This document shows, piece after piece, positions 27,640 through 33,126 of a DNA stretch of 45,888 nt. Source of the stretch: a virus. The notes under the pieces are model-generated. The model saw only the letters and a list, made by a program, of their open reading frames with translations. It made no database searches and was not told where the DNA came from. The stretch is taken from IMG/VR virus record IMGVR_UViG_3300025110_000029, positions 1 through 45,888 of that record, one strand, 5' to 3'. Within the stretch, counting starts at the first letter, position 1; every line of letters starts with the position of its first letter. The position numbers and the translations under genes were made by a program.

Positions 27640-27898
27640 TTTTTTCAATTGGATGCAACTTTCCCCCTTGGGTTTCCTATTTCAAGCGTTGATTTCAATC
27701 TAGCAGTGCTCCCCTTCTCAGTGGGACCCAAGGATAGTAAGACTGATGTTAATTCACCGCACCTACCTGTGTGCAATCTATCCTAACTAGAGCTTATACG
27801 TTGCTCTTTTTCCAATTACCGGAGAAAATCTCGTTCTTATTTAGAACTACCAATCCGATGTCTAATCCCGTTTTTGGTTACCAGGGGATGATAATATT
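27640..27898 (-). ncRNA. Candidate structured small RNA with its own promoter
   Basis: There is no credible ORF. On the minus strand several helices can be drawn: GTTCT/AGAAC, GAGA/TCTC, AGAGC/GCTCT, GGATAG/CTATCC enclosing a GCAC/GGTGC hairpin, and an 8-bp CCTTGGGT/ACCCAAGG stem enclosing about 50 nt. Base composition is richer in G+C than the surroundings. A strong promoter (27905-27934) sits immediately before it and a second promoter (27596-27628) just after it. I do not recognise tmRNA, RNase P, 6S or SRP signatures. The 3' end is not defined; no clear terminator is seen. Confidence 0.6.
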
Positions 27899-27904
27899 GG
27901 ACTG

Positions 27905-27934
27905 CAAAGATATAGTAAATTTATTACAATGCAA
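27905..27934 (-). promoter_or_regulatory. Promoter of the small structured RNA
   Basis: TATCTTTGC at 27912-27905 and TTG at 27934-27932 on the minus strand, separated by 19 bases. This is a near-ideal Bacteroidota promoter. Transcription would begin near 27898. Confidence 0.7.
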
Positions 27935-28496: not shown

Positions 28497-28516
28497 GAGA
28501 GTTCTTTTCACTTTTT
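28482..28516 (+). terminator. Rho-independent terminator overlapping a stop codon
   Basis: GAATTCTCC pairs with GGAGAGTTC (9 bp including one U-G) around CTTTA, which contains most of the TAG stop. It is followed by TTTTCACTTTTT. Confidence 0.8.
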
Positions 28517-28565
28517 ATATATATATATGTATATAATAGTAGTTAGTAATGGGGAGTCTGTGTGT

Positions 28566-28668
28566 GTGTTATGGTAAGTATTCACTTAAAAACGAAACAA
28601 GTATTGTGATAAACAAAAAAAGACATAGAGTGTTGTGTTGACTAGTGCACAACCTTACCACTTAACAC
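28566..28668 (+). ncRNA. Structured leader or small RNA segment
   Basis: In the gene-free stretch 28517-28880, GTGTT-AT-GGTAAG (28566-28578) can pair with CTTACC-ACTT-AACAC (28654-28668). This encloses a GTTGTG/CACAAC hairpin (28632-28637 with 28648-28653) that abuts it. Downstream are an 8-bp hairpin ATATAACA/TGTTATAT with CTAA loop (28717-28736) and GTCT/AGAC (28741-28752). The stretch has no ORF and follows a strong terminator. It may be the leader of the gene at 28881 or a separate RNA. No promoter was recognised. Confidence 0.4.
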
Positions 28669-28880
28669 CACTTTATCCCACTATTTAACTATTAGTATAA
28701 ACAGATGTATTGTATTATATAACACTAATGTTATATTGAAGTCTAATCAGACGGACTATAAATACAGTTAGTATACTGACTATGAACTGACCAGAGTTAT
28801 TGAGTTAACTTGTGTTGTGAGGCACTTAAAAACTCTAAGAGTAGATAATTAATCGAGTAGAAATTAAAAGAATAAAAAGA

Positions 28881-30560: not shown

Positions 30561-30610
30561 TCACTTATTAAACTTTATGTTAACAGTGACGGTAATATTA
30601 CATGTATAGA

Positions 30611-30657
30611 AGAGAGTAGTTAGTACTCGTATCCTAGCTACTCTCTTTCTTTTTTAT
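30611..30657 (+). terminator. Strong rho-independent terminator
   Basis: AGAGAGTAGTTAG pairs with CTAGCTACTCTCT (13 bp with one G-U) around a 10-base loop, followed by TTCTTTTTT. It ends the small-gene operon and immediately precedes the large structured RNA. Confidence 0.85.
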
Positions 30658-30660
30658 ACA

Positions 30661-31522
30661 CAGACTCTGGATAAGATAGCTGCAGCTATTGGACCTTACA
30701 TTTGAAAAGATAAACTTTGATTTAAGCTTTTAATGTCGACAAAAGAGTCTCCAACTTCATCAGAATACAAGCCTTGACGTGGCGATGAAGCTTTAAACCA
30801 ATTGTATTACACTGGGGCTTAACCCGATAAGTATAGTAATATACCTAAAGACATAGTGTGGAAACTATGTTGCCATAACAATTAGAAATGGTCAATTTAA
30901 GCAAGCAGGATACTACACGGCACCAATGGACGAATGTCTGAGGGTATGTGTATCTCTTCGTTTAGTTGGAGAGATGAGCTAGTGATAGCAATAGGAAATA
31001 ACTGTAGATTTAGTTCTGAGTTAACTGTCGAGTTAATTAAGTGTATAAATCAGTATGATGGGCAATCTTAGGGAATAAGATATAACCTGAAATATCATAA
31101 CGATGAAAAGTTATATGTGAGTAGTATAGTATTTTGTCTCTCAAAAGGAGACGAAGCTATAGGATAACCGCTACTTGCGCCATTAAGAAAGGCAATAACG
31201 CCAAATAACAACTAAAAAGAACAAGTGTTGTTCCGTTAAACATTGAAAGATGACTAAGTCTGGACACGTAAGTGAATTCAGTTGCATTGATCCCTCAAGG
31301 TGATATGTATTGCAAACCAAAGTCAGGAATGGGTCGATCAACCTATCTCCTCGTATGAGTAATTTGTGAGTAGATGTTAACGTTAAGAGTAATTAGCTAT
31401 ACTAATTGTCATTGCACAATACTATGGGAGACTGTAGTGGATACGTTGTAAACCTGGACTAACTGAAAGGGAGTTAAACAACTAAAGATGTGTGTATAAT
31501 GGTGTAATCTCAGCCCATTATA
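30661..31522 (+). ncRNA. Candidate giant ornate non-coding RNA (about 860 nt)
   Basis: There is no ORF of useful size on either strand. Helices visible by eye, in order: AGACTCT/AGAGTCT (30662-30668 with 30744-30750), enclosing ATAGCTGCAGCTAT and an ACATT..AAAAG/CTTTT.AATGT stem; CTTCATC/GATGAAG, whose loop AATACAA (30764-30770) pairs outside with TTGTATT (30802-30808), a pseudoknot; GTATA-GTAA-TATAC; ACATAGT/ACTATGT; ATCTCT/AGAGAT; GCTA-GTGA-TAGC; TTAACT-GTCG-AGTTAA; TATAG..GTCTC/GAGAC..CTATA; GAACAA/TTGTTC; TTGATCCC/GGGtcGATCAA; AATTAG/CTAATT; GTTGT..TAACT/AGTTA..ACAAC; and a final TATAATGG/CCATTATA. Two loops are GNRA type. Size and complexity recall GOLLD or ROOL RNAs of phages, but sequence identity was not tested. 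No promoter is recognised. Confidence 0.7.
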
Positions 31523-31562
31523 AAACTTTAGAGTAGAATATTAATCAAATCAATTAAATAAA

Positions 31563-31724
31563 ATGGCAAAGAAAACAACAACAACAGGTAACAAAAGAAA
31601 AACAATCAAAGAATTACAATATCATATTGATTGTCATGAGAAAACAATGAAACATCAACAGATTGTAATAGCAGGTTTAGTATTATTATGTATTATTCTG
31701 TTTATTAGCCCGTATTTCTACTAA
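31563..31724 (+). CDS. Small membrane-anchored protein, 53 aa
   Basis: Starts MAKKTTTTGNKRKTIKELQY. Residues 1-32 are basic and hydrophilic; residues 34-49 (IVIAGLVLLCIILFIS) form one transmembrane helix, with PYFY at the end. The ATG follows an AAATCAATTAAATA leader sequence also seen before three other genes. Its TAA overlaps the next start (TAATG). It is the first gene after the large RNA. No family is recognised. Confidence 0.6.
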   Translation: MAKKTTTTGNKRKTIKELQYHIDCHEKTMKHQQIVIAGLVLLCIILFISPYFY

Positions 31725-31915
31725 TGAAAGCGGGTAAAGAAAGAGTCTTCCTTGACTTGAATGAAAAGGAAGCCCAATCTAGTGGTATATTTGTTAGGAA
31801 CGATTTAGTTAGAATTGTTCAACAAATAGAATCAGATGGAGACAAGAAAGTCATTGGAATAGTATTCAATGATACATATACTATAGAAATAATAACCAAA
31901 GAAATCAAATTATGA
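31724..31915 (+). CDS. Hypothetical protein, 63 aa
   Basis: Small alpha/beta protein (MKAGKERVFLDLNEKEAQSS; later KKVIGIVFNDTYTIEIITKE). It is coupled by overlaps at both ends, one base with the membrane gene and 4 bases with the next. Function unknown. Confidence 0.5.
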   Translation: MKAGKERVFLDLNEKEAQSSGIFVRNDLVRIVQQIESDGDKKVIGIVFNDTYTIEIITKEIKL

Positions 31916-32106
31916 AACATTACACGAAAAAAGGAGAATGGTGTAAACTAGTTCTCTTCAACAAAATAGAATTGTGCTTAAAATATAATTTTAGTACAAG
32001 AGAAATCGACACATTTATGGTAGGTGCCAAAATAAGACAAGGTATATGTATAGGTGTGTTCGGAATAATGATCGAATTTAATTATGGTGGAAGCACAATG
32101 TTATAA
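31912..32106 (+). CDS. Hypothetical protein, 64 aa
   Basis: Begins MKHYTKKGEWCKLVLFNKIE, with a possible hydrophobic beta or short membrane-like segment near the end (GICIGVFGIMIEFNYGG). It overlaps the previous gene by 4 bases. It may be a small early host-interaction protein; no family is recognised. Confidence 0.45.
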   Translation: MKHYTKKGEWCKLVLFNKIELCLKYNFSTREIDTFMVGAKIRQGICIGVFGIMIEFNYGGSTML

Positions 32107-32116
32107 ACCATGAGTC

Positions 32117-32326
32117 ATGATAATAAAGATGAAAGGACAAAGAGTTGATTTAAAGAATGCGAACACTTCTAAACTTGAAAGAGTTATGAACTGTTTGCAT
32201 TATTTAAAGACTGACTCGACTGTCGTTAAAAAAGAAATGATTAAATTTGTTATCCTTTTATTGGATAAGAAAATAAAAAGATTATATGAAAAAGAAAAAG
32301 TTAAACTCAAACAATCCGAAATATAA
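32117..32326 (+). CDS. Hypothetical helical basic protein, 69 aa
   Basis: Helical with a very basic C-terminus (KKIKRLYEKEKVKLKQSEI). A second in-frame ATG four codons in (MKGQRVDL) is an alternative start. The last 41 bases overlap the next small gene in another frame. No function is recognised. Confidence 0.45.
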   Translation: MIIKMKGQRVDLKNANTSKLERVMNCLHYLKTDSTVVKKEMIKFVILLLDKKIKRLYEKEKVKLKQSEI

Positions 32327-32508: not shown

Positions 32509-33126
32509 ATGGCAAATCAATTGAACAGTGGATCATTAGACACTCTAAAACCTAATGAAACTTTATTACTACAAGCTAGAAAAGTAGCTAACGGTAAAAT
32601 ACAATTAGAAGTAGCTGAATCAATTCAAGTAAGTGACAGACCTATGAATGTATTAGGTATGTTAAATAAATCTGATGATAGATTTAAATCAAATGCTAGA
32701 AGAACTTGGGTAACAGCTGAACCAACAGATGCAACAGAGTTATTTAAGATAAACTTTGGTGCTGATGCAGAATGGTACATGGGAACATCTAAATCAGGAG
32801 CTCAAGTTGAGTTATTAGATTTAAATGTATTAAACCCTGTAATCAATGATACAAGATGTAGAATTTTAGTTACTGAAACTATTGATCCTACTGAATGGCA
32901 AGCAGAAAATGTAGAGAGAGCAGCTAAAAGAAAGGGTGCTGAAGGTGCATTTATTACTCATGATAGTAATTATATCTTTTCTAATACTACATTAGTATTA
33001 ACTAATGGAGAGACAAAAGAGATGCATACATTCTTAAAGCCTGACAGTGTAGCAATGCAAACTGAAACTGAAGATGCTTCTGTTATGAGTATGGTAAGTA
33101 CACCTGCTGATCAAATAGATTTATAA
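32509..33126 (+). CDS. Abundant early protein of unknown function, 205 aa
   Basis: Beta-rich with an acidic C-terminal tail (ETEDASVMSMVSTPADQIDL), an arrangement also seen in ssDNA-binding proteins, although the clear SSB is at 40543. Notable segments are PNETLLLQARKVANGKIQLE, then DRFKSNARRTWVTAEPTDAT and ETKEMHTFLKPDSVAM. A small hairpin (GTTGAT/ATCAAC, 32460-32482) lies in its leader and a strong terminator follows it, so it may be separately and highly expressed. It lies just before DNA polymerase. An accessory replication role is possible; the family is not recognised. Confidence 0.55.
   Translation: MANQLNSGSLDTLKPNETLLLQARKVANGKIQLEVAESIQVSDRPMNVLGMLNKSDDRFKSNARRTWVTAEPTDATELFKINFGADAEWYMGTSKSGAQVELLDLNVLNPVINDTRCRILVTETIDPTEWQAENVERAAKRKGAEGAFITHDSNYIFSNTTLVLTNGETKEMHTFLKPDSVAMQTETEDASVMSMVSTPADQIDL

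What the first reader, a model, noticed from the sequence alone, without database searches (positions are those of the whole stretch)
30661..31522. Giant, highly structured gene-free segment: candidate ornate phage RNA
About 860 nt lack any ORF in a genome that is otherwise packed. At least a dozen hairpins, two GNRA tetraloops (GUAA, GUGA), nested helices and a 7-bp pseudoknot (AATACAA 30764-30770 with TTGTATT 30802-30808) are visible by eye. A strong terminator lies immediately 5' and a small operon 3'. GOLLD and ROOL RNAs are the known phage RNAs of this size; this could be a divergent member or a new class. Unlike many such RNAs no tRNA is adjacent.
Basis: partly seen in the sequence, partly recalled or inferred. 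Interest (0 to 1): 0.88.

Follow-up and report, generated by a model that had tools for sequence, protein, structure and literature searches.

The report
GOLLD cage RNA in crAss-like phage
The gene-free stretch is a GOLLD RNA, a known class of giant phage RNA that can assemble into hollow cages, here a variant carried by crAss-like phages that has an extra folded piece at its front and lacks one of the hairpins that hold the two halves of the known cage together.

Summary
Observation confirmed; the 'GOLLD or new class' question is settled as GOLLD. Rfam GOLLD (RF02032) matches 31117-31516 (+) over its whole length (211.6 bits, cut-off 150, E 1.5e-58). That model covers only the conserved 3' domain. 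The 5' domain (30813-31116), not modelled by Rfam, is conserved in 12 phage contigs and strongly supported by compensatory changes (38 pairs, 17.4 in shuffles, 0/500). It shares its opening hairpin and loop pairing with other GOLLD. The phage is crAss-like (Crassvirales). The clade lacks the P21b hairpin that bridges the half-shells of the env-38 cage, and its L21a loop switches between 4-nt palindromes, consistent with retained self-assembly. GOLLD is patchy among close relatives, so it is accessory. ROOL, OLE and HEARO are not matched. New variant of a known kind; function unproven, probably a self-assembling RNA cage made during infection. A separate candidate new RNA (27650-27901, minus strand) lies nearby.

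The parts
30609..30657 (+). terminator-like hairpin (15 bp, 10-nt loop) with U-rich tail, ends just before the RNA
   Evidence: fold -20.1 kcal/mol, z -4.5; similar hairpin in L144, absent in L129/L158/L159
30658..30812 (+). extra 5' structured module (type I), upstream of canonical GOLLD; five phages plus a diverged copy in L267
   Evidence: alignment A3, covariance model R1; 100% pairing, 4 pairs changed on both sides, 0 in every slid control
30755..30808 (+). H-type pseudoknot: 30755-30761/30784-30790 (covarying) crossing 30764-30770/30802-30808 (invariant)
30813..31116 (+). GOLLD 5' domain (cap domain in the env-38 structure)
   Evidence: 12 contigs; covariation 0/500 shuffles
30814..30825 (+). 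5'-most hairpin GGG-GCUUAA-CCC; its 6-nt loop pairs with UUAAGC 30897-30902
   Evidence: both helices covary within the clade; same arrangement in 22 of 22 group-A members where the partner was located and 11/11 of group B
31117..31516 (+). GOLLD 3' domain
   Evidence: RF02032, 211.6 bits, model 1-416
31179..31219 (+). short variable linker (cage interior in env-38); no tRNA here, whereas five group-C relatives examined carry a tRNA in it
   Evidence: Rfam alignment, ARAGORN
31329..31346 (+). L21a-equivalent hairpin; loop UCGAUCAA with 4-nt palindrome that switches GAUC/CUAG/GGCC among relatives; the following P21b hairpin is missing
31496..31532 (+). 3' terminal hairpin (P27-like) extended beyond the Rfam end
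   Evidence: fold
31563..32326 (+). downstream small-ORF operon (53, 63, 64, 69 aa), not part of the RNA

Best explanation
The segment is a single-copy GOLLD RNA gene on the + strand of a crAss-like phage. Shown: it has the canonical 3' domain and a homologous, shorter 5' domain (core about 704 nt), preceded by a lineage-specific 155-nt structured module. Inferred: the RNA is transcribed during infection and folds into a cap (5') and ring (3') domain. It then self-associates through loop-loop and A-minor contacts into a hollow RNA-only particle with the short linker inside, as env-38 GOLLD does. Because P21b is gone in this clade, the half-shells would be held by the L21a self-kissing loop, enlarged to a 4-nt palindrome, rather than by L21a plus L21b. 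The 5' module is most likely an added leader or accessory domain of the same transcript. The particle is an accessory factor rather than an essential one. What it encloses or sequesters (ribosomes, tRNA, protein) is unproven.
For: RF02032 match over the full model, single copy in the record. 43 of 120 IMG/VR records found by a short GOLLD motif also match the model, so the motif alone does not make a GOLLD. Strong 5'-domain covariation. 5' hairpin/loop pairing shared with the other large GOLLD group. L21a palindrome switching, the same kind of evidence used for bridge B8 in PMC12286853. GOLLD env-38 forms a 14-mer cage in vitro (PMC12286853). An ~800-nt ORF-less RNA that the authors compare with GOLLD/ROOL is the most abundant ICP1 transcript, and the L. 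brevis prophage GOLLD accumulates in lytic growth but is dispensable (PMC7567579). Patchy occurrence: relatives with TerL 79-83% identical (G155, G159, G163, 82-90 kb records) lack it.
Against: No transcript was observed. No promoter of host type was recognised just upstream: the scans found nothing above chance. Oligomerisation cannot be tested here. The P21b loss could mean this clade does not close a full cage. The palindrome argument rests on three loop types, and L269/L270 are an exception.
Confidence: 0.85

Rival explanations
1. The extra 5' module is not part of the mature GOLLD particle: it is a separate cis-acting leader (for example an antitermination or processing element) that is cleaved off.
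For: In every group-A GOLLD (38/38) a GTTCTTT[GA]A element resembling the Bacteroidota rRNA leader box lies between the promoter and the RNA (16S leaders), so a leader with a likely transcriptional role exists in that group. L145 and L268 have a GOLLD whose 5' domain follows an ORF end directly, with no module. The module lies upstream of the position that corresponds to env-38 nucleotide 1 (inference from domain lengths).
Against: The window has no GTTC[AT]TT box near GOLLD; the module has its own covarying pseudoknot, more than a boxA needs.
Confidence: 0.45
2. A divergent ROOL or a wholly new large RNA class.
For: Blastn found no similar sequence in 50,697 phage records; the 5' half is not modelled in Rfam.
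Against: GOLLD model scores 61 bits above its cut-off; no ROOL match; 5' opening hairpin shared with other GOLLD.
Confidence: 0.02
3. A degraded protein gene or chance structure in AT-rich DNA.
For: None found.
Against: No long frame; relatives at 70-94% identity keep base pairs through compensatory change.
Confidence: 0.01
4. The RNA works as a monomeric decoy or host-factor sponge; cage formation by GOLLD is not relevant in this clade.
For: Loss of P21b, which forms a half-shell bridge in env-38.
Against: L21a palindrome switching is hard to explain without self-pairing.
Confidence: 0.12

Closest known systems
GOLLD RNA (Rfam RF02032)
   Same: 3' domain over the full 416-position model at 211.6 bits; total length about 700-860 nt; phage-borne
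   Different: 5' domain only about 304 nt against about 391-428 in group A; P21b hairpin deleted; extra 5' pseudoknot module; short linker without tRNA; no adjacent tRNA
GOLLD env-38 (cryo-EM 14-mer, PMC12286853)
   Same: two-domain layout, L21a self-complementary loop, variable linker in the 3' region
   Different: no L21b (bridge B9 in env-38); L21a palindrome is 4 nt rather than 2; assembly not tested
ROOL RNA
   Same: size class and phage context
   Different: no Rfam match
ICP1 ~800-nt ORF-less RNA (PMC7567579)
   Same: large phage ncRNA without tRNAs nearby
   Different: sequence relation not tested here

Membership tests
GOLLD (RF02032) | 3' domain matches the curated covariance model above its gathering score | tested here: met
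   211.6 against 150 bits, model 1-416; the 12 clade members score 192.7-226.2 bits
GOLLD (RF02032) | structured 5' domain supported by covariation | tested here: met
   0/500 shuffles; slid controls 33-41% paired against 97.7%
GOLLD (RF02032) | 5' domain homologous to that of other GOLLD | tested here: met
   opening hairpin with 6-nt loop pairing 6/6 downstream: 11/11 of group B, 22/22 scorable of group A; group C by eye. Blastn similarity only weak
GOLLD env-38 cage | L21a self-kissing loop (bridge B8) | tested here: met
   loop palindrome GAUC/CUAG/GGCC in the clade; L269/L270 carry a non-palindromic tetranucleotide
GOLLD env-38 cage | P21b/L21b hairpin (bridge B9); seen in the env-38 structure, not used here to define the family | tested here: not met
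   17-position deletion in Rfam alignment and in all 12 members
GOLLD env-38 cage | homo-oligomeric RNA-only cage | not testable with these tools
   needs mass photometry or cryo-EM
GOLLD (RF02032) | frequent tRNA nearby or in the linker (common, not defining) | tested here: not met
   no tRNA in window
ROOL / OLE / HEARO | match to the Rfam model | tested here: not met
   no match at gathering
Crassvirales (host phage) | crAss-type TerL, portal and major capsid protein | tested here: met
   TerL 41% to Suoliviridae phages, MCP about 31% to Intestiviridae and other crAss phages; PHROGs 6681, 6547, 11589

The most novel reading that the evidence does not exclude
A crAss-phage lineage of GOLLD builds an altered RNA cage: half-shells joined only through a strengthened L21a palindrome after loss of L21b, with an added 5' pseudoknot module that decorates or regulates the particle and can pair over 10 nt with a second conserved ORF-free element (28554-28563) of the same phage.
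Probability: 0.25. Interest if true: 0.6.

Novelty: new variant of a known kind. Interest (0 to 1): 0.4.

Why it matters
GOLLD function is unknown. This clade offers natural gain and loss among close relatives (TerL 79-93% identical), a natural deletion of one inter-shell contact and a natural extra domain. These make the questions 'which contacts does the cage need' and 'what does the phage gain from it' directly testable. It also places GOLLD in crAss-like phages, a very abundant group; five gut crAss-like genomes tested here had none.

Tried and rejected
ROOL/OLE/HEARO: no match. Nucleotide similarity to isolated phages: none. Promoter scans upstream: sigma-70-like and Bacteroidota-like hits no more frequent than in shuffles, so no promoter is claimed. 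boxA in the window near GOLLD: not found. The idea that the module's UUUAAGC competes for the GCUUAA loop was dropped because it does not covary in L144 (my reading). Plain MFE z-scores of the module pieces are unremarkable (-0.5 and -1.3); only comparison with relatives shows the structure. Paper searches for GOLLD with crAss or boxA gave nothing relevant.

Full report
What is there. Rfam's GOLLD model matches window 31117-31516 (+) end to end, 211.6 bits against a cut-off of 150, E 1.5e-58; nothing else in Rfam reaches its cut-off in the 45.9-kb window, there is no tRNA, and the record holds one copy.

Relatives. A 14-nt motif from the RNA's 3' end found 120 IMG/VR stretches; the GOLLD model confirms 43 of those records, and two subfamily patterns plus a neighbour protein added 24 more. 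By the 450 nt upstream of the 3' domain they fall mainly into three groups: A (38), C (11) and B (12, with the window). Within group B the 3' domain is 70-89% identical to the window.

The 5' domain. Rfam models only the 3' domain. In group B the stretch equivalent to 30813-31116 aligns across all members. On 11 distinct sequences, 97.7% of cells pair (88.3% in shuffles), 38 pairs change on both sides (17.4 in shuffles), and sliding the partners by 1-3 columns drops pairing to 33-41%. The domain opens with a hairpin whose 6-nt loop pairs with 6 nt about 75 nt downstream (GCUUAA 30817-30822 with UUAAGC 30897-30902). Both helices covary, and the same arrangement with different sequences is found in 22 of 22 group-A members where the partner was located. 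The 5' domain is therefore homologous, not a replacement. It is about 100 nt shorter than in group A.

The extra module. 30658-30812 is present in the window, L129, L158, L159 and L144. A covariance model of it also finds a weak copy in L267 (26.6 bits, E 0.0056). All 31 named pairs are kept in all five sequences; four pairs change on both sides, against 0 in every slid control (only five sequences, so moderate evidence). G-U pairs that replace A-U in helix 30755-30761/30784-30790 fit the + strand being the RNA. In L145 and L268 a protein gene ends 309-319 nt before the 3' domain, so the module is absent there. L147, L269-L271 carry a different element at that place (by eye). The boundary 30813 matches the env-38 start by domain length (420-nt 5' region), which is inference.

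Cage contacts. PMC12286853 reports that env-38 GOLLD is a closed 14-mer, with self-kissing loops L21a and L21b joining the half-shells. In group B the P21b hairpin is missing in all 12 members, and the L21a loop carries a 4-nt palindrome at its centre that changes as a unit: GAUC, CUAG, GGCC (L269/L270 are an exception). Assignment of the two hairpins to L21a and L21b is by order and by numbering (index about 230-236 of the 3' domain against nucleotides 656-657), not by reading the figure. I take this as evidence that self-association is retained, at moderate strength.

The phage. TerL is about 41% identical to Suoliviridae crAss-like phages and the capsid protein about 31% to other crAss phages. 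PolA, SNF2-type helicase, DnaB, primase and exonuclease lie downstream. Close relatives split: with GOLLD, TerL 80-93% identical (G108, G021, G122, G076); without, 72-83% (G163, G159, G155, G148; records of 82-90 kb). The gene downstream (205 aa, 32509-33126) is conserved in both sets, so GOLLD is an accessory cassette at a fixed place. In G148 (L240) a different 620-nt ORF-free region with no Rfam match lies at that place. Records may be incomplete, so absence is provisional.

How it probably works. Step 1 (inferred): transcription of the + strand. A terminator hairpin at 30609-30657 separates it from upstream genes here, and I could not identify its promoter. Step 2 (shown for structure, inferred for kinetics): folding into cap and ring domains. 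Step 3 (inferred from env-38): assembly into a hollow particle with the 41-nt linker inside; in the five group-C relatives examined the linker holds a tRNA, here none. Step 4 (unknown): benefit to the phage. GOLLD in the L. brevis prophage accumulates in lytic growth and is dispensable (PMC7567579), which fits an accessory role.

Side result on expression. All 38 group-A GOLLD genes have GTTCTTT[GA]A between a Bacteroidota-type TANNTTTG promoter box (36/38) and the RNA; shuffles expect 0.1. The same kind of box occurs in 64 of 113 16S rRNA leaders of mostly Bacteroidota contigs, shuffles 1.5 (slightly wider pattern; the exact GTTCTTTGA in 37). Group A therefore looks as if it uses an rRNA-like leader, which would suit a long untranslated RNA. 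The window's own GOLLD has no such box.

Novelty. Membership in GOLLD is secure; the 5' module, the P21b loss and the crAss-like host make it a variant. I found no report of GOLLD in crAss-like phages in the held library, but that library is partial.

Noticed in passing
27650-27901 (-), promoter-like TATCTTTGC at 27904-27912 (-): Conserved, ORF-free, covarying RNA candidate of about 250 nt between the two divergent arms; 53 IMG/VR contigs by pattern; on 17 sequences 95.9% of cells pair, 21 pairs changed on both sides against 11.0 in shuffles, 0/500. No Rfam match better than E 2.9, no blastn match in INPHARED. Possibly a new RNA class of crAss-like phages.
   Followed up: partly
28497-28880 (+): Second conserved ORF-free region after a terminator-like hairpin, 77-95% identical in relatives. 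It carries GAGTCTGTGT (28554-28563), exactly complementary to the start of the GOLLD 5' module (30658-30667); both are kept in all five type-I phages and are the only copies in each.
   Followed up: partly
L240 4709-5328: 620-nt ORF-free region at the GOLLD place in a relative without GOLLD, tRNA-Met upstream, no Rfam match at E 1; 82-84% similar stretches in L242 (pieces in a rearranged order that suggest two tandem copies) and L243.
   Followed up: partly
group-A GOLLD loci, e.g. L155, L139, L134: rRNA-leader-like GTTCTTT[GA]A box between TANNTTTG promoter and GOLLD in 38/38; a box of the same kind in 64/113 16S leaders.
   Followed up: yes
L131, L146, L160, L163, L148 (3' domain linker): All five group-C GOLLD examined carry a tRNA gene inside the linker that lies in the cage interior of env-38.
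   Followed up: partly
L447 (LR745206.1 420875-421280): A 635-kb uncultured phage genome carries a GOLLD at 287 bits, unannotated.
   Followed up: no
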